DNA of 64,000 nucleotides from Cepaea nemoralis (Eukaryota; Mollusca; Gastropoda; Stylommatophora; Helicidae), in the NCBI GenBank assembly GCA_014155875.1, contig JACEFZ010028301.1, forward strand, positions 103,501 through 167,500, in the 5' to 3' direction. A program made the translations under genes and the position numbers. Positions 7,277 through 56,764 of the stretch are shown here, in pieces; the first letter of the stretch is position 1, and each line of letters opens with the position of its first letter. The notes beneath the pieces were generated by a model, which worked only from the letters and a program-made list of their open reading frames with translations, had not been told where the DNA came from and did no database searches.

Positions 7277-8812
7277 TATACTGTTAAAAAAAAAAAAAAA
7301 AAGAAACGCATAGCTATCCGATGGTGTGTTTTTATGGGGTTGTAAGTAAAATTTGTTGCTAGGGTAATTAAAAACCAGCCTCAAATTTCTTTAGTGTCAA
7401 ATGCATGTGTTGACCTGAATTGCTTTCGTTTTTGTAATCGTTACAATGCAGTGGTCAATAGTGTTTATGACCAAATTGTTACATTAACTAATGATGCGCG
7501 CATGTGAAAGCTACAATATTTGGAGTGAACACTATTCACTGACTACGCAACTGAAACTCTGAAAAGGATAATGCTACACAAAACAATTCAGTTCATTTTT
7601 AAGCAAACATCTATGGCGTCTCTTTCGATAAATTTAAGGAACATTGCTATTGGCCGACTGCATGCAGGCGAAGTCAAAGTTAAGTTGCCAGGCATCTAAA
7701 CGTGCATCAGAGTACCATCAGTCGATTTTGTCACCGGTTCCAAGCCTCTGTCTCAGTTGAAGACCGGCATCGCAGTGGCCGACCCGGAGTGACAACAGCA
7801 GCGGATGATCGCTTTATTCGACTTCATCACATAAGAGACAGGTTTGCAACATCTTCCTCAACTGCCCGGCCATTGCCTGCAGAGTGGGTCTGATCAAACT
7901 GTCCGGAATAGACTGCATGAAGCTGGACTTCGGGCAGAACGCCTCATCGTGGACCTATCCTTACACGCCGCCATCGCCAAAATCGACTTTTTTGGGCTAA
8001 CCAGCATCGTCCCTGGGCAGCAGACAACCAATGGAGATGTGTCTGTTTTAGTGGTGAATCTTTCTCTTTGTTGCAGCGTCATGATAGTCAGAGAAGGGTC
8101 TACCGTGGGTGAAATGAACGTTTTGCCCACAATTGCGGTAATGAAGCCCCGCCGTACGGTGGTAGAGGTGCAATGGTGTGGGGAATGAAAAGTTACCGCG
8201 GAAGGAGTCAATTGGTTCACACTGAAGGAGGCTTTAATGCGCCACGATATGTCAATAAAATTCTTCGACCCCATGCCTTCCACTTTTGGCTACCCAAAGG
8301 TCTGTGTTTCAACAGGACAATGCCAGACTCCATTGTGCACGGTTGACCACACTGTTCCTGACTGCCAACAACATTCTCACCCTTCCCTGGCCATCCCTGT
8401 CTCCAGACACGAGTCCGATTGAACACCTGTGGGTTGAGCTTCATGAACGTGCTTGTCGCCGAGACGTTGCTCCAGCCAATCGTCGTGATCTGTTCAAGGC
8501 ACTCCAAGAAGAGTCGGCAGCCATCCCACAGGCCCACATCAGATGGCTGATCGCATCCATGCCCAGGAGATGCCAGTCACTAATCGATGGAAGAGGAGGC
8601 CACACACCATACTAACAGGAAAGCTCATACGTCTAAAAACTCTCTTGGCCCAGATGCGAAACAACTGTCAATTGATTATCTGAACCCTAAGATATTCTTA
8701 TGTGCAATTTGAACAATTAACTCATTACATTAAAAAAAGTTACTGGATATCAGAATTATGGCTATGTGTGTGCCTTCGATATCTATGCGTTTCTTTTTTT
8801 TGAACAGTATAC
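7277..8812 (+). mobile_element. Tc1/mariner-superfamily element, inactive
   Basis: Terminal inverted repeats are visible: the left end starts tatactgttaaaa and continues aagaaacgcatag, and the right end is its reverse complement (ctatgcgtttc... gaacagtata). Both ends abut TA, the target site of this superfamily. The left repeat holds an A run expanded to 18. The 1.54-kb length matches a complete Tc1-type element with one transposase gene. The interior encodes a frameshifted transposase, so the copy is dead. Confidence 0.88.
7613..8615 (+). pseudogene. Tc1-type transposase, frameshifted
   Basis: Pieces in different frames line up with a Tc1-like DDE transposase of about 340 residues. In order they are: an N-terminal helix-turn-helix (IAIGRLHAGEVKVKL, then HQSTISRFCHRFQ at 7,703), the RSGRPGVTTAADDRFIRLHH linker, DQTVRNRLHEAGLRAERL near 7,893, then FSGESFSLLQRHD near 8,049, MVWGM, and FQQDNARLH at 8,306. 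The final block is SPIEHLWVELHERACRR through GRGGHTPY, ending at 8,615. In a functional family member the first motif reads F-S-D-E-S; here the catalytic Asp is Gly (GGT). The Asp of QQDNARLH and the Glu of SPIEHLW remain. At least three frameshifts separate the blocks. Confidence 0.85.
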
Positions 8813-12099: not shown

Positions 12100-12903
12100 T
12101 TCACTTGTTTAAGAATATGCCCATTTACTCATATATCATCACACTGTGGTATTTTCTTCTTCCTTCAGTTCTAACCCTAATTGTTCACTGTGTGCAACAA
12201 CCGCATCTACTAAATTTAGCAAGTCCTGTTCATTGTCTACAATCAAGACTTTATCATCTGCATATCTAATGTTATTGATGTATCGTCCCCCAATGTTGAT
12301 TCCTTCTATATCTTCTATATTTCTGAAAATATTTTCACTGTACACGGGAAAAAAAACATCTGGAGACATTACACATCCCTGCCTCACACTTCTTTTAATA
12401 GGCTGATATCGACTTACATCGTTATCTATTCTGATGGCAGCTTGTTGTTTCCAATATATGTTTTTTTACAAGTCTAAGGTCTCTTCCATCAATTTGTAGA
12501 TCTTCAAGCATTCTTATCATGTATACATGTCTCACTTTATCGAAAGCCTTTGTGTGGTCAATAAAGCAAAGATATAGATCTTTGTTTACTTCTATAGAAC
12601 GTTCAATTACTGTTCTCAGTATACACACAGCATTTACTGTGCCCTAGCCTTCTACAAACCCACATTGTTCTTCTCCTATTTTGGGTTGTATTTTCTTCCC
12701 AACTCTTTGCATGATAATTCTCAGCAGAATCTTCGTGATGTGGCTCATTTTACTAATTGCTCGATGTTGATCGCATTCCAAGGCTCCTGATTTCTTCGGG
12801 ATTGCAATAAATATAGAATTACATAATTCAGGAGGTATATCTCCAGTATCGTATATTGCGTTCAGCAGTCTGGTGACTTGGTCTATTCCATATTCTTCTA
12901 AGG
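12100..12903 (-). pseudogene. LINE A reverse-transcriptase domain, 3' half
   Basis: Successive minus-strand frames give: GDIPPELCNSIFIAIPKKSG with the following ECDQHRAIS (RT motifs 1-2, near 12,770-12,850), IGEEQCGFVEG (12,650), YLCFIDHTKAFDKVRH (motif A with catalytic Asp, about 12,530-12,580), RQGCVMSP (12,365-12,387) and IRYADDKVLIV (motif C, YADD intact, about 12,240-12,275). Several frameshifts and stops separate the blocks. Catalytic Asp residues are still encoded, which suggests moderate age. Confidence 0.85.
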
Positions 12904-22042: not shown

Positions 22043-23028
22043 TTAAAGGTAAGACTGCCTCTCACAGTCAGTGGCAGTCCCAAATGCCTGCCGTAAGAGA
22101 ACGGCGAAGAAGATACTAAAAAGTGTAGGAGCAAGCACGCAGCCCTCCTTTACTCCACTGCTGATGCTGAATGACTGGGATGTTGAACCATCGAATAAAT
22201 CCGCCGCATATTTTCGTGAAATGATTTCACTAGACTTAGCAGGGTGGGTGGACATCCTATCTTCTCAAGGATCTTGAAAAAGCCGTCTCTGCTCACGAGG
22301 TCAAATGCCATTGTGAGGTCGATGAAAGCAATATATAATGGCTTCCTCTGTTCTCTGCATTTCACTTGGAGCTGCCTGAGTGAGGAAATCATGTCGATGG
22401 TGGACCTGTTGGGTCTCAATCCGCACTGTGATTCGGGGTAGATTCTTTCAGCAAGAACGTGTAGTCTTTTTAGGATTATTCGAACGAAAATCTTGCCTGT
22501 AATGCTGAGTAGGGAAATGCCGCGATAATTGTTGCAATTGTTTCTATCACCTTTGTTTTTATAAATGGTAACACTGTTTGCGTCCCTCATATCTTGTCGC
22601 ACTGATGTTTCTTTCCAGCAGAGCTGACATATTGCATACAGTTCTGGGATGATTGTTTCTTTGCCACGTTTTAAAATTTCAGGCGGAATACTATCTTTTC
22701 CTGGTGCCTTGCCGGATTTGAGAGTGTTTAGTGCTTCGCTGATTTCTGTGAGGCACGGTTTGTTATGCAGGGCATGCATGGTGGACTGTTGTTCAATGGC
22801 TTCCAGAGCTTCTTCTCCGACAGTGTTCTCTACTGAGTATAGCGCTACCCAGCGACCCATTTGTTTCGCTCGATCTTTTATGATTACTCCCTCTGTTGAT
22901 CGTAAAAGGGCCATCTTATGTTTTGATGGGCTGACAGCTTGCTTGATGCCCTTGTGCATTCCTCTTATATTTCCAGTGTCTGCACAAGTTTGAATTTGAG
23001 CAGAGAGCTGTAGCCAGTACCTGTTCAC
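22043..23028 (-). pseudogene. LINE C reverse transcriptase, frameshifted
   Basis: The 292-codon frame (23,028-22,150) contains LKSGKAPGKDSIPPEILKRG (RT entry), RDANSVTIYKNKGDRNNCNN followed by YRGISLL (motif 1-2), YPESQCGLRPNRSTIDMI and PLYIAFIDLTMAFDLVSRDG (motif A with catalytic Asp). It then shifts frame to GVKEGCVLAPTLFSIFFAVL (22,100-22,165), the Q-G-C-V-L-A-P block. Motif C is not present. The family resembles LINEs common in molluscs and cnidarians. RT copies the element RNA at the nicked target. Confidence 0.87.
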
Positions 23029-23201
23029 ACATTTTCTCTATATTGCTCTATTTCTGGCCGTTCGCAGTGTTGCAATGTTTTCTCTGAAGGTGATGTGTTA
23101 TACACTGAGAATGCATGTCTCTGAATCTCCAGGACTGGGAGCATCTCTTCAGAGTGTGCTACAAACCAGTAGGTTGACTTAGTTTGCTTCTTGCCAAATG
23201 T

Positions 23202-34935: not shown

Positions 34936-37900
34936 CACATGGGGGATGAAAATCACATGGGGGATGAAAATCACATGGGGGATGAGTCACGTGGGGGATG
35001 ACAGTCACATGGGGATGACAGTCACGTGGGGGATGACAGTCACATGGGGATGACAGTCACATTGGGGATGACAGTCACATGGGGAATGACAGTTACATGG
35101 GGGATGCCAGTTACATGGGGGATGCCAGTCACATGGGGGATGACAATCACATGGGCGATAACAGTCACATGGGGGATGACAATCACATAGGGGATGACAG
35201 TCACATGGGGGATGACAGTCACATGGGGGATGACAGTCAAATGGGGGATGACAGTCACATGGGGGATGACAATCTCATAGGGGATGACAGTCACATGGGG
35301 GATGACAGTCACATAGGGGATGACAGTCACATGGGAGATGACAATCTCATAGGGGATGACAGTCACATAGGGGATGACAGTCACATAGGGGATGACAGTC
35401 ACATGGGGGATGACAATCTCATAGGGGATGACAGTCACATGGGGGATGACAATCTCATAGGGGATGACAGTCACATGGGGGATGACAGTCACATAGGGGA
35501 TGACAGTCACATAGGGGATGACAATCTCATAGGGGATGACAGTCACATGGGGGATGACAATCTCATAGGGGATGACAGTCACATGGGGAATGACAGTCAC
35601 ATGGGAGATGACAATCACATAGGGGATGACAATCACATGGGGGATGACAGTCACATGGGGGATGACAGTCACATGGAGGATGACAATCTCATAGGGGATG
35701 ACAGTCACATGGGGGATGACAGTCACATGGGGGATGACAGTCACATGGGGGATGACAATCACATGGGCGATAACAGTCACATGGGGGATGACAATCACAT
35801 GGAGGATGACAGTCACATGGGGGATGACAGTCACATGAGAGATGACAGTCACATGGAGGATGACAGTCACATGGGAGATGACAATCACATGGAGGATGAC
35901 AGTCACATGGACGATGACAGTCACATGGGCGATGACAATCACATGGGAGATGACAATCACATGGAGGATGACAGTCACATGGGAGATGACAATCACATGG
36001 AGGATGACAGTCACATGGGAGATGACAGTCACATGGAGGATGACAGTCACATGGGGAATGACAGTCACATGGGGGATGACAATCACATAGGGGATGACAG
36101 TCACATGGGGGATGACAGTCACATAGGGGATGACAGTCACATGGGGGATGACAATCACATAGGGGATGACAGTCACATGGGGGATGACAATCTCATAGGG
36201 GATGACAGTCACATGGGGGATGGCAGTCACATGGGGGATGACAATCACATGGGGGATGACAATCTCATAGGGGATGACAGTCACATAGGGGATGACAGTC
36301 ACATAGGGGATGACAGTCACATGGGGGATGACAGTCACATAGGGGATGACAGTCACATGGGGGATGACAATCACATAGGGGATGACAGTCACATGGGGGA
36401 TGACAGTCACATGGGGGATGACAGTCACATGGGGGATGACAATCTCATAGGGGATGACAGTCACATGGGGAATGACAGTTACATGGGGGATGCCAGTCAC
36501 ATGGGGGATGACAATCACATGGGCGATAACAGTCACATGGGGGATGACAATCACATAGGGGATGACAGTCACATGGGGGATGACAGTCACATGGGGGATG
36601 ACAGTCAAATGGGGGATGACAGTCACATGGGGGATGACAATCTCATAGGGGATGACAGTCACATGGGGGATGACAGTCACATAGAGGATGACAGTCACAT
36701 GGGAGATGACAATCTCATAGGGGATGACAGTCACATAGGGGATGACAGTCACATAGGGGATGACAGTCACATGGGGGATGACAATCTCATAGGGGATGAC
36801 AGTCACATGGGGGATGACAATCTCATAGGGGATGACAGTCACATGGGGGATGACAGTCACATAGGGGATGACAGTCACATGGGGGATGACAATCTCATAG
36901 GGGTGACAGTCACATGGGGGATGACAATCTCATAGGGGATGACAGTCACATGGGGAATGACAGTCACATGGGAGATGACAATCACATAGGGGATGACAAT
37001 CACATGGGGGATGACAGTCACATGGGGGATGACAGTCACATGGAGGATGACAATCTCATAGGGGATGACAGTCACATGGGGGATGACAGTCACATGGGGG
37101 ATGACAGTCACATGGGGGATGACAATCACATGGGCGATAACAGTCACATGGGGGATGACAATCACATGGAGGATGACAGTCACATGGGGGATGACAGTCA
37201 CATGAGAGATGACAGTCACATGGAGGATGACAGTCACATGGGAGATGACAATCACATGGAGGATGACAGTCACATGGACGATGACAGTCACATGGGCGAT
37301 GACAATCACATGGGAGATGACAATCACATGGAGGATGACAGTCACATGGGAGATGACAATCACATGGAGGATGACAGTCACATGGGAGATGACAGTCACA
37401 TGGAGGATGACAGTCACATGGGGAATGACAGTCACATGGGGGATGACAATCACATAGGGGATGACAGTCACATGGGGGATGACAATCTCATAGGGGATGA
37501 CAGTCACATGGGGGATGACAGTCACATGGGGGATGACAATCACATGGGGGATGACAATCTCATAGGGGATGACAGTCACATAGGGGATGACAGTCACATA
37601 GGGGATGACAGTCACATGGGGGATGACAGTCACATGGGGATGACAGTCACATGGGGGATGACAATCACATAGGGGATGACAGTCACATGGGGGATGACAG
37701 TCACATGGGGGATGACAGTCACATGGGGGATGACAATCTCATAGGGGATGACAGTCACATGGGGAATGACAGTCACATGGGGGTTGACAGTCACATGGGG
37801 GATGACAATCTCATAGGGGATGACAGTCACATGGGAGATGACAGTCACATGGAGGATGACAGTCACATGGGAGATGACAGTCACATGGAGGATGACAGTC

Positions 37901-40900
37901 ACATGGGGAATGACAGTCACATGGAGGATGACAATCACATAGGGGATGACAGTCACATGGGGGATGACAGTCACATAGGGGATGACAGTCACACGGGGGA
38001 TGACAATCACATAGGGGATGACAGTCACATGGGGGATGACAATCTCATAGGGGATGACAGTCACATGGGGGATGACAGTCACATAGGGGATGACAGTCAC
38101 ATGGGGGATGACAGTCAGATGGAGGATGACAATAACATGGGTGACGACAATCACATAGGGGATGACAATCTCATAGGGGATGACAGTCACATGGGGAATG
38201 ACAGTCACATGGGAGATGACAATCACATAGGGGATGACAGTCACATAGGGGATGACAGTCACATGGGGGATGACAGTCACATGGGTGACGACAATCACAT
38301 AGGGGATGACAATCTAATAGGGGATAACAGTCACATGGGGAATGACAGTCACATGGGAGATGACAATCACATAGGGGATGACAATCACATGGGGGATGAC
38401 AATCTCATAGGGGATGACAGTCACATGGGGGATGACAGTCACATAGGGAATGACAGTCACATGGGGGATGACAGTCACATGGGGGATGACAGTCACATGG
38501 GGGATGACAATCACATGGGGGATGACAATCTCATAGGGGATGACAGTTTCATGGGGGATGACAATCACATAGGGGTTGACAGTCACATGGGGGATGACAG
38601 TCACATGGGGGATGACAATCACATGGGGGATGACAATCTCATAGGGGATGACAGTCACATGGGGGATGACAATCACATAGGGGATGACAATCTCGTAGGG
38701 GATGACAGTCACATGGGGGATGACAATCACATAGGGGTTGACAGTCACATGGGGGATGACAGTCACATGGGGGATGACAATCTCATAGGGGATGACAGTC
38801 ACATGGGGGATGACAATCACATAGGGGTTGACAGTCACATGGGGGATGACAATCTCATAGGGGATGACAGTCACATGGGGGATGACAATCACATAGGGGA
38901 TGACAATCACATAGGGGATGACAGTCACATAGGGGATGACAGTCACATGGGGGATGACAATCACATAGGGGATGACAATCACATGGGGGATGACAATCTC
39001 ATAGGGGATGACAGTCACATAGGGGATGACAATCACATAGGGGATGACAATCACATGGGGGATGACAATCTCATAGGGGATGACAGTCACATGGGGGATG
39101 ACAATCTCATAGGGGATGACAGTCACATGGGGGATGACAATCTCATAGGGGATGACAGTCACATGGGGGATGACAATCACATAGGAAATGACAATCACAT
39201 AGGGGATGACAATCACATGGGGGATGACAATCACATAGGGGATGACAGTCACATGGGGGATGACAATCTCATAGGGGATGACAGTCACATGAGGGATGAC
39301 AATCACATAGGGGATGACAATCACATAGGGGATGACAATCACATGGGGGATGACAATCACATAGGGGATGACAGTCACATGGGGGATGACAGTCACATGG
39401 GGGATGACAGTCACATGGGGGATGACAATCTCATAGGGGATGACAGTCACATAGGGGATGACAGTCACATGGGGGATGACAATCTCATAGGGGATGACAG
39501 TCACATGGGAGATGACAGTCACATGGAGGATGACAGTCACATGGGAGATGACAGTCACATGGAGGATGACAGTCTCATGGGGAATGACAGTCACATGGGG
39601 GATGACAATCACATAGGGGATGACAGTCACATGGGGGATGACAGTCACATAGGGGATGACAGTCACATGGGGGATGACAATCACATAGGGGATGACAGTC
39701 ACATGGGGGATGACAATCTCATAGGGGATGACAGTCACATGGGGGATGACAGTCACATAGGGGATGACAGTCACATGAGGGATGACAGTCAGATGGAGGA
39801 TGACAATAACATGGGTGACGACAATCACATAGGGGATGACAATCTCATAGGGGATGACAGTCACATGGGGAATGACAGTCACATGGGAGATGACAATCAC
39901 ATAGGGGATGACAGTCACATAGGGGATGACAGTCACATGGGGGATGATAGTCACATAGGGGATGACAATCACATAGGGGTTGACAGTCACATAGGGGTTG
40001 ACAGTCACATGGGGGATGACAGTCACATGGGGGATGACAATTACATGGGGGATGACAATCTCATAGGGGATGACAGTCACATGGGGGATGACAATCTCAT
40101 AGGGGTTGACAGTGACATGGGGGATGACAATCACATAGGGGATGACAATCTCATAGGGGATGACAGTCACATGGGGATGACAATCCATAGGGGTTGACAG
40201 TCACATGGGGGATGACAGTCACATGGGGGATGACAATCTCATAGGGGATGACAGTCACATGGGGGATGACAATCACATAGGGGTTGACAGTCACATGGGG
40301 GATGACAATCTCATAGGGGATGACAGTCACATGGGGGGTGATAATCACATAGGGGTTGACAGTCACATGGGGGATGACAGTCACATAGGGGATGACAGTC
40401 ACATGGGGGATGACAATCACATAGGGGATGACAGTCACATGGGGATGACAGTCACATGGGGGATGACAATCACATAGGGGATGACAGTCACATAGGGGAT
40501 GACAGTCACATGGGGGATGACAGTCACATGGGGGATGACAATCTCATAGGGGATGACAGTCACATGGGGGATGACAATCACATAGGGGATGACAATCACA
40601 TAGGGGATGACAGTCACATAGAAGATGACAGTCACATGGGGGATGACAATCACATAGGGGATGACAATCACATGGGGGATGACAATCTCATAGGGGATGA
40701 CAGTCACATAGGGGATGACAATCACATAGGGGATGACAATCACATGGGGGATGACAATCTCATAGGGGATGACAGTCACATGGGGGATGACAATCTCATA
40801 GGGGATGACAGTCACATGGGGGATGACAATCACATAGGGGATGAAAATCACATAGGGGATGACAATCACATGGGGGATGACAATCACATAGGGGATGACA

Positions 40901-43768
40901 GTCACTTGGGGGATGACAATCTCATAGGGGATGACAGTCACATGGGGGATGACAATCACATAGGGGATGACAATCACATAGGGGATGACAATCACATGGG
41001 GGATGACAATCACATAGGGGATGACAGTCACATGGGGGATGACAGTCACATGGGGGATGACAGTCACATGGGGGATGACAATCTCATAGGGGATGACAGT
41101 CACATAGGGGATGACAGTCACATGAGGGATGACAGTCACATGGGGGATGACAATCTCATAGGGGATGACAGTCACATGGGAGATGACAGTCACATGGAGG
41201 ATGACAGTCACATGGGGAGATGACAGTCACATGGAGGATGACAGTCTCATGGGGGAATGACAGTCACATGGGGATGACAATCACATAGGGGATGACAGTC
41301 ACATGGGGGATGACAGTCACATAGGGGATGACAGTCACATGGGGGATGACAATCACATAGGGGATGACAGTCACATGGGGGATGACAATCTCATAGGGGA
41401 TGACAGTCACATTGGGGGATGACAGTCACATAGGGGATGACAGTCACATGGGGGATGACAGTCAGATGGAGGATGACAATAACATGGGTGACGACAATCC
41501 ACATAGGGGATGACAATCTCATAGGGGATGGACAGTCACATGGGGAATGACAGTCACATGGGAGATGAGAATCACATAGGGGATGACAGTCACATAGGGG
41601 ATGACAGTCACATGGGGGATGACAGTCACATGGGTGACGACAATCACATAGAGGATGACAATCTCATATGGGATGACAGTCACATGGGGAATGACAGTCA
41701 CATGGGAGATGACAATCACATAGGGGATGACAATCACATGGGGGATGACAATCTCATAGGGGATGACAGTCACATGGGGGATGACAATCACATGGGGGAT
41801 GACAGTCACATAGGGGATGACAGTCACATGGGGGATGACAGTCACATGGGGGATGACAGTCACATAGGAGATAACAATCACATAGGGGTTGACAGTCACA
41901 TAGGGGTTGACAGTCACATGGGGGATGACAGTCACATGGGGGATGACAATCACATGGGGGATGACAATCTCATAGGGGATGACAGTCACATGGGGGATGA
42001 CAATCTCATAGGGGTTGACAGTCACATGGGGGATGACAATCACATAGGGGATGACAATCTCATAGGGGATGACAGTCACATGGGGGATGACAATCACATA
42101 GGGGTTGACAGTCACATGGGGGATGACAGTCACATGGGGGATGACAATCTCATAGGGGATGACAGTCACATGGGGGATGACAATCACATAGGGGTTGACA
42201 GTCACATGGGGGATGACAATCTCATAGGGGATGACAGTCACATGGGGGATGATAATCACATAGGGGTTGACAGTCACATGGGGGATGACAGTCACATAGG
42301 GGATGACAGTCACATGGGGGATGACAATCACATAGGGGATGACAGTCACATGGGAGATGACAATCTCATAGGGGATGACAGTCACATGGGGGATGACAAT
42401 CACATAGGGGATGACAATCACATAGGGGATGACAGTCACATGGGGGATGACAATCACATAGGGGATGACAATCACATGGGGGATGACAATCTCGTAGGGG
42501 ATGACAGTCACATGGGGGATGACAATCACATAGGGGATGACAATCACATGGGGGATGACAATCTCATAGGTGATGACAGTCACATGGGGGATGACAATCT
42601 CATAGGGGATGACATTCACATCGGGGATGACAATCTCATAGGGGATGACAGTCACATGGGGGATGACAATCACATAGGGGATGACAATCACATAGGGGAT
42701 GACAATCACATGGGGGATGATAATCACATAGGGGATGACAGTCACATGGGGGATGACAATCTCATAGGGGATGACAGTCACATGGGGGATGACAATCACA
42801 TAGGGGATGACAATCACATAGTGGATGACAATCACATGGGGGATGACAATCACATAGGGGTTGACAGTCACATAGGGGATGACAGTCACATGGGGGATGA
42901 CAATCACATAGGGGATGACAATCACATGGGGATGACAATCACATAGGGGATGACAGTCACATAGGGAATGACAATCACATAGGGGATGACAATCACATAG
43001 GGGATGACAGTCACATGGGAATGAAAGTCACATGGGGGATGACAATCACATAAGGGATGACAATCACATAGGGGATGACAGTTACATAGGGGATGACAAT
43101 CACATGGGGGATGACAGTTACACTGTCTCTTATACACATCTGTCACATGGGGGATGACAGTCACATGGGGGATGACAGTCACATGGGGGATGACAGTCAC
43201 ATGGGGGATGACAGTCCCATGGGGGCTGACAATCACATGGTGATGACAATCACATGGGGGATGACAGTCACATGGGGGATGACAGTCACATGGGCGATGA
43301 CAGTCTCATGGGGGATGACAGTCACATGGGGATGACACTCACATGGTGGATGACAGTCACATGGGGATGACAGTCACATGGGGGATGACAGTCACATGGG
43401 CGATGACAGTCACATGGGGGATGACAGTCACATGGGAGATGACAATCACATGGGGGATGACAGTCACATGGGGAATGACAGTCACATGGGGGATGACAAT
43501 CACATAGGGGATGACAGTCACATGGGGGATGACAGTCACATGGGGGATGACAGTCACATGGGAGATGACAGTCACATGGGGGATGACAGTCACATGGGCG
43601 ATAACAGTCACATGGTGATGACAATCACATGGGGGATGACAATCACATGGGGGATAACAATCACATGGTGATGACAATCACATAGGGAATGACAATCACG
43701 TGGGGGATGACAATCACGTGGGGATGACAATCACATGGGGGATGACAATCACATGGGCGATGACAGTA
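34936..43768. repeat. Giant 18-bp satellite array, about 490 units
   Basis: The consensus unit is catgggggatgacagtca (18 bp). Limited variants include cagt/caat, cacat/ctcat, ggggg/agggg/gagg and rare gggtt. The array spans about 8.8 kb. Because 18 is a multiple of three and the unit lacks stops in several frames, both strands stay open for hundreds of codons: H-M-G-D-D-S on plus, H-V-T-V-I-P on minus. Marker variants show longer periods: gtcaaatggg recurs 1,368 bp apart (76 units) at about 35.23 and 36.60 kb, and gtcagatggaggatgacaat recurs 1,674 and 1,673 bp apart (93 units) at about 38.11, 39.79 and 41.46 kb. No promoter, start context or flanking exon supports a gene. Confidence 0.97.
43123..43141. 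other. Tn5/Nextera mosaic-end sequence (assembly artefact)
   Basis: The 19 bases ctgtctcttatacacatct equal the transposase mosaic end used in Nextera libraries, as I remember it. They interrupt the 18-bp array between gacagttaca and gtcacatggg, and nothing similar occurs in the other array units. Natural origin is very unlikely. This is almost certainly untrimmed adapter or a mate-pair junction carried into the assembly, so array length and continuity at this point are not reliable. Confidence 0.93.
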
Positions 43769-43793: not shown

Positions 43794-44290
43794 CAGTGTT
43801 TCCCAACGTGGGGCCCACGCCCCACAGGGGGGCAATTTGACTGTTAAGGGGGGCAATTCGAAAATGGAAGGAATCGGCTGAATATAACAAAACGGGGAGA
43901 CTTGAGACTGAAGTTAACTAAATTGGAACCTGACATAAGATCTCTTTGCAACAAGCATCAAGCGCAAGGATCTCACTAAATTTAAATAATAAATAATTAC
44001 TAATAATTAAAATAATATAGAAAAATCTTTCATTAAAATTATTTTGTACTTGAATTTCAGTTCTCCATTATATGTTTTGAAAATTTACTTACTGTGTTTG
44101 CTCAATAATTACCTAGTGATTTCTTCCTAAAACCTATCATTCAAGTTTCTTTAGTGAACATTTCAATGTTTGAATATTAAAAATAATGTATATGTTGAGG
44201 GGGGGGGGGGCATGGGGCGGGGGAGGGGGGCAATATGAATTTTAGAAAGGCTTAAGTGGGGCATGGTACAAAAAAGTTTGGGAAACACTG
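43794..44290. mobile_element. hAT MITE with 8-bp target duplication
   Basis: It starts cagtgtttcccaacg and ends gtttgggaaacactg, flanked by exact atctaaag on both sides (43,786-43,793 and 44,291-44,298). The 497-bp interior is AT-rich in the middle and has G runs near the ends (44,199-44,230). The right terminus on the minus strand (cagtgtttcccaaacttttt, then tgtaccatgcccca) parallels the left end of the 12.9-kb MITE (cagtgtttctcaaccttttt, then tggcctatgccccc), so they are one family. It encodes nothing and would need a hAT transposase in trans. Confidence 0.92.
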
Positions 44291-49324: not shown

Positions 49325-49800
49325 TACGAGGTGGCTTCAAATTAAAACCTTACATTTTTTTATATTGTTTGTGAATATTATCTGAAAAAGTAAAGAATAA
49401 ATGTATCATTTTTCGATGTAGTCTCCACGGCGTTCAATGCAAGGTCTTCAGCGCCGATAAAATACTTGGATTCCTGTGGAATAAAATTATCTTGGTGGCG
49501 TATGTAACCACTCATGCAACACTTGCTGTACCTCGTCATCGGACCGAACCGTTTTGAAACTTCCTTACTCCACTCATACACTTGCTGCACTGACAGGCAT
49601 GCATCACCATATCGGACCTTTATTCGCCGATGAATCTCTATAGGTTTCACCCATTTCCTGATCAAACAACGGATAACAGAACGCTGCTCTTCTTTTGTGC
49701 ATGTCAAAAGTGAGGCGGTCATATTTGAAATGTCATGATGACATCACCGCGTTCGTCTGCACCGTGATGTCACGTGCTTAACACTCTTGACACCCTTAAC
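49325..49800 (-). mobile_element. Mariner element, internally deleted
   Basis: On the minus strand an ORF (49,722-49,378) encodes a mariner transposase start: TKEEQRSVIRCLIRKWVKPI then EIHRRIKVRYGDACLSVQQV-Y-E-W. After a frameshift it encodes the extreme C-terminus (SDDEVQQVLHEWLHTPPR then CIERRGDYIEK). The catalytic core with the DD34D residues is deleted. The ends run from about 49,325 (gatacgaggtggcttcaaat) to about 49,800, but exact inverted repeats were not resolved. The N-terminal helix-turn-helix is intact, so the peptide could in principle bind element ends without cutting them. It is a non-autonomous derivative. Confidence 0.8.
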
Positions 49801-51162: not shown

Positions 51163-51734
51163 CCAGCACCACTTCTCTCAATCTGTCTGTGTCTCTTCTC
51201 CCCCCAAAATGCACCTATGTATAAACATATACATTACGTTTCCATTCTCTCATGAATATTTATGTTATCAACACACGCTGATCTATGAATCAGCCAGGTG
51301 CTGTCTCACCTGAGAAGTTAACTGAAATGTGTCTATAAAATGTTTGTTTGTTCTTTAACACTGCATGCCTATGAATTATGGACTCTGCATGCACATATCA
51401 TTATTGAATCTATAGGCCACAGACAACGTGTTTCTTTGGAGAATAACATTTTTGGTTTTAATTGTCCTTTCTTCTTGTTTTATGCTTTATCTGATTCAGT
51501 GCCAAAGGATAAAATATCCAGACATGTGAGCTCCCATTTGGACAGAAGGACGATATATCGCCATACAAGGGTCATCGTGCTAGTTGTGTTGTTTCGAGTA
51601 TCTTCCATAATTTCAATGCCCAGTGAAGTCGCTGTAGTGTTTTACATCTGTTTATATATTGTGTTTGTTTTTTGTGATTGTTTCCTGATTAAGACTTGTC
51701 GCGGCAACGTCCTTTGTGTTCAGTAATTGTGTTT
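51163..51734. other. Unclassified DNA with an unassigned 128-codon frame
   Basis: An open frame at 51,340-51,726 on plus has no motif I recognise. It includes hydrophobic stretches (residues about 95-120) but the codon pattern is not convincing. I see no splice or TE signature. Confidence 0.3.
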
Positions 51735-52198
51735 TATAAACATGATCAAGAGGATAGAGGAGGGGTCGATCCGAAGAGAATGGTTGCGGCCTCTGGAGCG
51801 GTCGCGGCTGGCAAAGATTAATTTCATCTTCGTGCCAGGGCATGCGGGAGTACAAGGAAATGAGCGGGCTGACAAGCTCGCAGGTGAGGCTACTGTGGAG
51901 GGCGGACGCGCCATGGACCAGGCTGACATTCTGAATGCTCTACGAGAAGTAAGACTTTTGCGTGAACCAAGTGATGACTGTGAATCTACAACCATGGCCA
52001 GACTGCGAGAACAGCAAATTAAAAGAGGGGTGGCCAAACAAGAACACTACGCAGGAAGCCAAAGAAGATTGATAAACCAACACAGAACTGGTGTCGTTAG
52101 CCGCTATACGCTGCGGGATTTACTGAGGAGGGGATCCGAGCACTTATGGACTGAATGGTTCGATGTGCACTGAGGATGATCTGTCGACTAACTAACTA
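51735..52198 (+). CDS. RNase H C-terminal fragment of a non-LTR retrotransposon
   Basis: The frame ending at 52,173 is intact for about 145 codons. It contains RLAKINFIFVPGHAGVQGNE then RADKLAGEATVEGG (about residues 27-60 of the frame). The V-P-G-H-x-G-V-x-G-N-E-x-A-D-x-L-A block is the RNase H C-terminal signature with its His and catalytic Asp. The following charged segment and the stop fit the end of an I/Jockey-type ORF2. After the stop, ctaactaactaactaac (52,180-52,198) is a simple-sequence 3' tail. Everything upstream of the RNase H is missing, so this is a 5'-truncated and fairly young insertion. In a full element RNase H removes the RNA strand of the RNA-DNA hybrid. The fragment alone has no known role. 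Confidence 0.82.
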
Positions 52199-54437: not shown

Positions 54438-56764
54438 CAGGGGTGGGCAAACTACGGCCCGCGGGCCGCATGCGGCCCGCCAAGTGATTTTATGCGGCCC
54501 GCGAGGACATTTAGAAATAAAAATGTTTAATTCGTTTTTAAGTTATTTTGTTGAATTTTACAAAATTTCATGTACCGTTATGATGAGTGCCAATAACAAA
54601 CGTAAGATTGAAGATGAATGCTTTTTAATGATGAATGGACAACTAAGTACTGTTTTATAAAAGTTGGTAGCAAATCAGTTTGCTTGTTGTGTCGTGAGTC
54701 AGTGGCTGTCTTCAAGGAGTACAATTTAAAAAGGCATTATCAAACAAAACATTCCGATTTCGGATACAATTTAACGACCGAAGAGAAGTAAAGGAAATGC
54801 CTTGAATTGGTGAAAAATTTGGAGAAACAGCAAACTGTTTTCACTAAACAGTCTTAAATTCAAGATTCTGCAACTGAAGCTAGTCGTGTGCTGTCACACA
54901 AAATTTTAAAATAGAACAAGTCATTTTCTGATGGCGAGTTCATCAAGGAATGTTTGCTAGATGCAGCAAACATTATGTGTCCAGAACAAAAACAAAAAAA
55001 AAAAAAAAAAAAAAAAAGATTTGACAACATTACTTTATCAAGGAGAACTGTGGTCAGACGTGTTGGCAAGATCAGTGACAATTTGATGCATAAACTTCAA
55101 GATGCAAGTAAACAATTTTTGTGGTACTCTCTTGCATTGGATGAGTGTACCGATGTACATGATACTGGCCAATTATTGATATTTATACGTGGAATAAACA
55201 CTTCTTTCAAACTCACTGAAGAGTTACTGAGTGTTGATTCACTCAAAGATACAACCACAGGCCATGATATATTCAATGCTGTTACTAACTGTATTGAAAG
55301 AACTGGATTGGTTTGGAACAAGATGGCAAGTGTTACAACTGACGGAGCTCGAGCTTTGACTGGAAAAAATTTAGGTCTGGTTAAGTTGATAAGTGATAAG
55401 ATTAAAGCAGGATATCCAGATCACACATTATTACCACTTCACTGTGTGATCCACAAGAAAGTCTGTGTAAAACTGTTTTGAATATCAAGCATGTTATTGA
55501 CCCAGTTGTCAGTGTTATCAACCTCATCAGATCAAGAGGACTTAATCACAGACAGTTCAAGTCATTACTTGACGATTTGGAAACTGAACATTCCGATATC
55601 CTGAACCACACCAATGTTCGATGGCTGAGTCACGGCAAGGTGTTGAGGCGATTGTGGGAACTCAGAGAAGAAATAGTGATGTTCCTAGAGATGAAGGGCA
55701 TTGCATGTGACTTTAATACTAACATTGTCAATAAAGAGTGGCAGTTAGACTTTATGTTTGCCATTGAAATTATGGAAAAGTAAAATGAACTGAATGTCAA
55801 ACTTCAGGGCAATGGTGTGTTTGCACATGAATTGTATGTACATGTAAAATCATTTCAGGCAAAACTCTCACTGTTCTCCAGAAAAGCAACTGAAAAAATA
55901 TTTGGTCACTTCCATTTGCTGAAACAAGAAGCCATTTATGGTGAAATGACTGAAAAATACAAAGCCCAATTAGATGCATTGATTGAAGAATTTGGATGGA
56001 GATTCCAAGATTTCAAGAAATTAGAGCCATAGTTCAATATTCTCAGTTCACATTTTAGTGCAGAAGCTGATACAGCCATAGAGGACATACAGTGGGAGCT
56101 GCTTGACTTACAAGCAGATCATGACCTGAAAGAGAAATTCAAGACAGATGGTTTGCTGGATTTCTATGGATCTTTATCACAAGAATCATTTCCCAACTTG
56201 AACAACTTTGCAGCTAAACTTTTATCATTGTTTGGATCAACATACATTTGCGAACACGCATTCTCTTGCTTGAAGATCAACAAATCTAAGAATAGGTATT
56301 TATTATCGGACTGCAACTAGCATGCTGTCATGCGAATTTCAATAAGTAAACTAGCTCCAGATTTCAAGAATATTGTCAAAAATTGCAATCAGTTACATAC
56401 ATCGCATTAGAAATCAACAACTGTAGTGACAATGCAGTCGCTGTGTGTCTAAATTAAAGCCATTGATAGATAATAAAGAATATTTATTATGATAACAAGT
56501 TGTGAAATCGTGTTATCAAATTAGTAAAAGTGTTTGTCTATACTGTCAAATATAATGTTTAAGTGTATAAGTGAAATAAAATTGCAATAATTAGTTATTT
56601 ATGTTGCTTAATAATCTATAAATAATTATTAATTCTTATTGTGATAGGTTTCTGTAAACAAAATGGATATATATATATATATATCCATTTGACATACATG
56701 CGGCCCACCAATAGCTTTACATTTGTCAATGCGGCCCTCGGCCCGAAAAGTTTGCCCACCCCTG
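54438..56764 (+). mobile_element. hAT transposon, near full length, 8-bp target duplication
   Basis: The element starts caggggtgggcaaactacgg and ends with the reverse complement (gtttgcccacccctg). The exact duplication gtatatgt flanks it at 54,430-54,437 and 56,765-56,772. GC-rich subterminal repeats (cggcccgcgggccgcatgcg) lie inside the left end, and gcggcccacc and gcggccctcggcccg inside the right. Length 2.33 kb fits an autonomous hAT with a single-exon transposase. The coding region is broken, so this copy is now non-autonomous, but its ends may still be recognised. Confidence 0.95.
54577..56410 (+). pseudogene. hAT transposase (GTF2IRD2/ZBED-like), multiply broken
   Basis: Order of parts: KRKIEDECF, then after a one-base deletion in the T run near 54,620, KYCFIKVGSKSVCLLCRESV and KRHYQTKHSDFG, a BED-like zinc finger with C-x2-C ... 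H-x4-H. The RNase H-like core follows: ALDECTDVHDTGQLLIFIRG (first catalytic Asp block, about 55,137), then MASVTTDGARALTGKNLGLV (second Asp, about 55,327). A deletion near 55,452 shifts the frame. LNHRQFKSLLDDLETEHSDI and NVRWLSHGKVLRRLWELREE follow, and the C-terminal dimerisation part has CEHAFSCLKINKSKNRYLLS (about 56,250). In-frame stops include those near 54,789, 54,856 and 55,782. An A run of 24 (54,994-55,017) has expanded a Lys stretch. The family is related to the domesticated GTF2IRD2 and ZBED genes, from memory. Confidence 0.9.

What the first reader, a model, noticed from the sequence alone, without database searches (positions are those of the whole stretch)
43100..43160. Nextera mosaic-end sequence embedded in the array
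The 19-base ctgtctcttatacacatct is the Tn5 mosaic end and is present once, exactly, between array units. This is strong evidence of adapter carry-over and possibly a false join. The true array size and the link between the array and the GPCR side of the window are thus uncertain. It also creates the well-known V-Y-K-R-Q artefact in the minus-strand translation.
Basis: partly seen in the sequence, partly recalled or inferred. Interest (0 to 1): 0.75.

Follow-up and report, generated by a model that had tools for sequence, protein, structure and literature searches.

The report
Sequencing-adapter scar in repeat array
A 19-base piece of a laboratory sequencing adapter sits inside a repeat array in this animal-like genome assembly and most likely marks a place where two stretches of array were wrongly or uncertainly joined, so it is an assembly error and not biology.

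Summary
Confirmed and ordinary: an assembly artefact. The exact 19-mer CTGTCTCTTATACACATCT, the synthetic Tn5 mosaic end (ME) of Nextera-type libraries, lies once in the window at 43123-43141, inside an 18-bp minisatellite of about 491 copies (34936-43767). An order-2 Markov model expects 4e-6 exact hits. It is not a clean insertion: the flanks share 0 of 9 bases where Tn5 would leave a duplication, there is no second ME, and 12 bases (mod 18) of array phase are missing. As a yardstick, 246 of 260 ME copies in 239 public loci have their tail side within 100 bases of a locus end, and 0 of 260 their genomic side. The array's make-up changes at the ME: in 8 of 8 right-hand sub-windows the best change point lies within one unit of it, though over the whole array a point near 38152 scores best. 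Array length and the left-right link are unproven. No GPCR domain was found in 43 of 128 ORFs scanned. No reads were available, and the own-genome search did not complete.

The parts
43123..43141 (+). Exact Tn5 mosaic end (19 bp); in read-through orientation genomic DNA would be on the left and the adapter tail on the right. Read on the minus strand it gives the spurious DVYKRQ and MCIRDS peptides
34936..43122 (+). Left array tract, 18-bp minisatellite with higher-order duplications, ending mid-unit at the ME (454 units counted)
43142..43767 (+). Right array tract, 35 units counted, different variant make-up and out of 18-bp phase with the left tract

Best explanation
The 19 bases are leftover Nextera-type (Tn5 tagmentation) adapter in the assembly. 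A library fragment ended at 43122; a read ran through it into the ME; the adapter tail was lost or trimmed; and the assembler, gap-filler or polisher joined the end to another stretch of the same kind of array, leaving the bare ME at the seam. The ME is therefore most likely the mark of a false or collapsed join between two array tracts. Shown: the exact ME, the phase break, the absence of a target duplication, and the change of unit variants at that spot. Inferred: the read-through and joining steps, the kind of library, and that units are missing or that another locus was joined in.
For: Exact 19-mer, unique in the window, identical to the ME letters in PMC3046479 (passages). The ME is a laboratory hybrid of the natural outside and inside ends (PMC6201506, passages). 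The flanking 9-mers match at 0 of 9 positions and 12 bases mod 18 are missing, so this is not a clean insertion. Of 260 ME copies in 239 public loci, 246 have the tail side within 100 bases of a locus end and 0 have the genomic side there. 7 of the 14 other (internal) copies meet an N gap within 4 bases, that is, lie at joins; L072 is an internal ME followed directly by other sequence without N. In 8 of 8 sub-windows (the last 70 to 300 units) the change point lies within one unit of the ME, with 0 of 200 shuffles reaching it each time, and the ME boundary ranks 1 of 350 in a sliding 105|35-unit scan. ATAG-type units: 186 of 454 left, 2 of 35 right (Fisher 7.5e-6); units one G short: 8 of 454 left, 6 of 35 right (1.7e-4). 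23 of 35 right-tract units have an identical unit left of the ME, against 30-35 of 35 in 12 left-tract blocks (420 of 454 left units) compared with the rest of the left tract.
Against: No Nextera tail follows the ME: the next bases GTCACATGG match neither tail beyond the first G of the i5 tail, while 220 of 260 public copies start an i5 or i7 tail (193 with 8 or more tail bases; 25 end at the ME, 15 go on otherwise). Over the whole array the strongest change point is near 38152 and the ME is not among the 15 best. Array ends can diverge naturally: the left edge shows a weaker shift (log-likelihood gain 10.1 against 26.9 for a 35|105 split). The one-G-short units do not differ in a 35-against-35 comparison (2 against 6, p 0.26), and the p16A feature does not differ over the whole left tract (p 0.48). 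The right tract shares exact stretches of up to 88 bp with the left tract, so both belong to the same repeat family and perhaps the same locus. No reads were available.
Confidence: 0.85

Rival explanations
1. Adapter sequence was put in locally by short-read polishing or gap-filling, at a spot where the array order and length are otherwise right.
For: The right tract shares the repeat unit and exact stretches of up to 88 bp with the left tract; edge units of arrays can diverge naturally (left edge).
Against: It needs the ME to fall by coincidence on the highest-ranking of 350 boundaries in the sliding 105|35-unit scan, and a loss of 12 bases mod 18 in addition.
Confidence: 0.13
2. A real Tn5-type element, or a scar of one, in the source genome or in a cloning host.
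For: Only that the 19-mer is a functional Tn5 end.
Against: The ME is a laboratory hybrid (PMC6201506, PMC4248319, passages); single end in the window, no inverted partner, 0 of 9 target duplication, phase not kept; the natural outside and inside ends (letters recalled) match nowhere in the window with fewer than 3 and 4 mismatches.
Confidence: 0.01
3. Chance occurrence of the 19-mer.
For: None.
Against: About 4e-6 exact hits expected in the window, and the array unit has no similar sequence.
Confidence: 0.005

Closest known systems
Nextera/Tn5 mosaic-end read-through left in assemblies
   Different: 246 of 260 public copies sit within 100 bases of a locus end and 220 of 260 start an i5 or i7 tail; this one is internal, bare, and gapless.
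Internal ME at scaffold joins (e.g. L010, L042, L063) or in a gapless contig (L072)
   Same: ME inside a contig or scaffold, with a gap or other sequence on its tail side.
   Different: Seven of 14 internal copies meet N within 4 bases; here there is no N in the window. L072 is the closest match, but there the first three bases after the ME still fit the i5 tail.

Membership tests
Tn5 mosaic end from a tagmentation library | Exact 19-bp ME | tested here: met
Tn5 mosaic end from a tagmentation library | Genomic DNA on the CTGTCTC side, tail side outward | tested here: inconclusive
   The left side is array as expected, but the right side is array too; yardstick
Tn5 mosaic end from a tagmentation library | Adapter tail (i5 or i7) after the ME | tested here: not met
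   Next bases GTCACATGG; tail letters also in PMC11575248 (passage). The tail is usual (220 of 260 public copies), not universal: 25 of 260 end at the ME
Tn5 mosaic end from a tagmentation library | Absent from reads of a non-Tn5 library | not testable with these tools
   no reads held
Genuine Tn5/IS50 insertion | 9-bp target duplication | tested here: not met
   0 of 9 matches; 9 bp stated in PMC4248319 (passage)
Genuine Tn5/IS50 insertion | Two inverted ends around an element | tested here: not met
   single ME in the window, none on the minus strand
Assembly false join | Change of array make-up and phase at the seam | tested here: met
   but the whole-array change point is elsewhere
Assembly false join | Read coverage or read-spanning break at the seam | not testable with these tools
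   no reads; own-genome search unanswered

The most novel reading that the evidence does not exclude
The 19 bases are truly in the organism's DNA, for example a laboratory-derived or horizontally acquired ME scar at a real change of array type.
Probability: 0.005. Interest if true: 0.4.

Novelty: not a real feature. Interest (0 to 1): 0.06.

Why it matters
It warns that the length of this minisatellite and the continuity of the contig between its left and right sides should not be trusted, and that peptides holding DVYKRQ or MCIRDS from here are spurious. It also shows that a phase and variant-composition test can help to tell a join from an insertion when an adapter lies inside a tandem array. 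It says nothing new about biology.

Tried and rejected
Real Tn5 insertion: rejected (no target duplication, no second end, phase broken). Chance: rejected. Other adapters (Nextera tails, P5, P7, TruSeq, SMRTbell and a second PacBio sequence, nanopore, Mu end; letters recalled): no convincing match, best hits at 2 or more mismatches. A coding array: judged unlikely; open stretches in the array run up to 856 aa but are broken several times and occur on both strands. Nextera mate-pair junction (two inverted MEs, recalled): the second ME is absent, so not supported in its simple form. Naming the organism: reverse-transcriptase searches gave mixed animals (best named hit Penaeus vannamei, 66%; Bradybaena similaris, 70% over 53% of the query, and Plakobranchus ocellatus, 43%, where the best hit of all, 87%, has no name), so a gastropod-like mollusc is only a guess; a third query gave nothing. 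A search of plasmid records with 501 bases around the site found nothing (simple repeats are filtered), nor did a viral-contig search with the reverse transcriptase. Literature: searches for reports of ME-caused false joins (listings only: 1, 3, 1 and 2 papers) gave nothing that I used.

Full report
Observation. The window holds one copy of CTGTCTCTTATACACATCT, at 43123-43141 on the + strand, exact and without a second hit on either strand up to 3 mismatches (exact check). Shuffled sequence gives 0.03 hits at that tolerance, and an order-2 Markov model expects about 4e-6 exact hits. Adey et al. 2010 (PMC3046479; passages seen) print the same letters as the reverse complement of the 19-bp mosaic end. 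PMC6201506 and PMC4248319 (passages) describe the mosaic end as a hyperactive replacement for the natural ends, a mosaic of the outside and inside ends.

Setting. The site lies in an 18-bp minisatellite, unit CACATGGGGGATGACAGT, 34936-43767, about 491 copies. The window has no N. The array has long internal duplications, such as 581 identical bases at 35537 and 36904 and other copies at offsets of about 1.65-1.69 kb. Open frames in it are interrupted and present on both strands, so it looks non-coding. Peptides with DVYKRQ and MCIRDS come from the ME on the minus strand.

Insertion or join? If the 19 bases had been inserted into an intact array, the 18-bp phase outside them would be unchanged, or shifted by 9 for a Tn5 target duplication. 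Instead the left side stops after TACA and the right side starts at GT, with 12 bases mod 18 missing, the same for flank lengths of 18, 24, 36 and 54. The two 9-mers next to the ME match at 0 of 9 positions, and the window holds no second ME. This argues against a clean insertion and fits two independent ends brought together.

Does the array change there? Units were parsed with a cyclic alignment and scored for eight variant features; the two parsed units holding the ME were dropped before the counts. In eight sub-windows, the last 70 to 300 units, the best change point put the break just before unit 43101, the unit directly left of the ME, each time; the ME boundary itself scored almost as well, and 0 of 200 shuffles reached the value. 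In a sliding 105|35-unit scan the ME boundary ranked 1 of 350. ATAG-type units fall from 186 of 454 to 2 of 35 (from 21 of 35 to 2 of 35 next to the site), and units one G short rise from 8 of 454 to 6 of 35, though 35 against 35 the latter is 2 against 6, p 0.26. Of the right tract's 35 units, 23 have an identical unit to the left, against 30-35 of 35 for 12 left-tract blocks compared with the rest of the left tract. A unit-level local alignment found no match above its threshold for the right tract, while 7 of 8 full 45-unit left blocks matched upstream sequence; the eighth, and a last block of 4 units, did not, and the first two blocks were skipped for lack of upstream sequence. Against this reading: the strongest change point of the whole array is near 38152, with the ME not among the 15 best; array edges may diverge naturally (the left edge shows a smaller shift, 10.1 against 26.9); and exact stretches of up to 88 bp are shared across the ME.

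Yardstick. In these 239 loci there are 260 copies. 246 have the tail side within 100 bases of a locus end (taken to be the contig end) and 0 of 260 have the genomic side there. 220 of 260 go on with the start of the i5 or i7 Nextera tail, 193 of these with 8 or more tail bases; 25 end at the ME and 15 go on otherwise (tail letters also in PMC11575248, passage). Of the 14 copies further in, three lie only 101-171 bases from the end, seven meet an N gap within 4 bases, and one (L072) runs into other sequence without a gap or a full tail, as here. The ME in these public sequences is thus mainly an end mark, and inside a sequence it often sits at a join.

Verdict. The finding is right in substance. 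The ME is adapter carry-over (my estimate 0.98), and most likely at a false or collapsed join (0.85). What is in doubt is the length of the array and the link between the left tract of about 454 units and the 35-unit right tract with its flank. The own-genome search, which could have shown other MEs or other arrays, did not complete.

Noticed in passing
43794-44290: A short hAT-like non-autonomous element right of the array: inverted ends CAGTGTTTCCCAA / TTGGGAAACACTG and an 8-bp duplication ATCTAAAG on both sides. The hAT assignment is by recall of these features.
   Followed up: partly
35108-37484: Higher-order duplication in the array: 581 identical bases at an offset of 1367, with further copies elsewhere in the array at about 1.65-1.69 kb; could be real or an assembly duplication.
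   Followed up: partly
22153-23037 (-), 12142-12465 (-), 51727-52170 (+), 56033-56317 (+), 49381-49743 (-), 8259-8612 (+): Remains of mobile elements: two reverse transcriptases, RNase H, hAT dimerisation region, Mos1-like HTH, DDE_3 (the hAT, Mos1-like and DDE_3 matches are below the curated cut-off).
   Followed up: partly
L010, L042, L063, L079, L095, L108, L119: Public prokaryote records with an internal ME within 4 bases of an N gap, that is, adapter left at joins.
   Followed up: no
L072:3073-3091: ME inside an uncultured Myxococcales contig running into other sequence without a gap; a likely chimaeric join.
   Followed up: no
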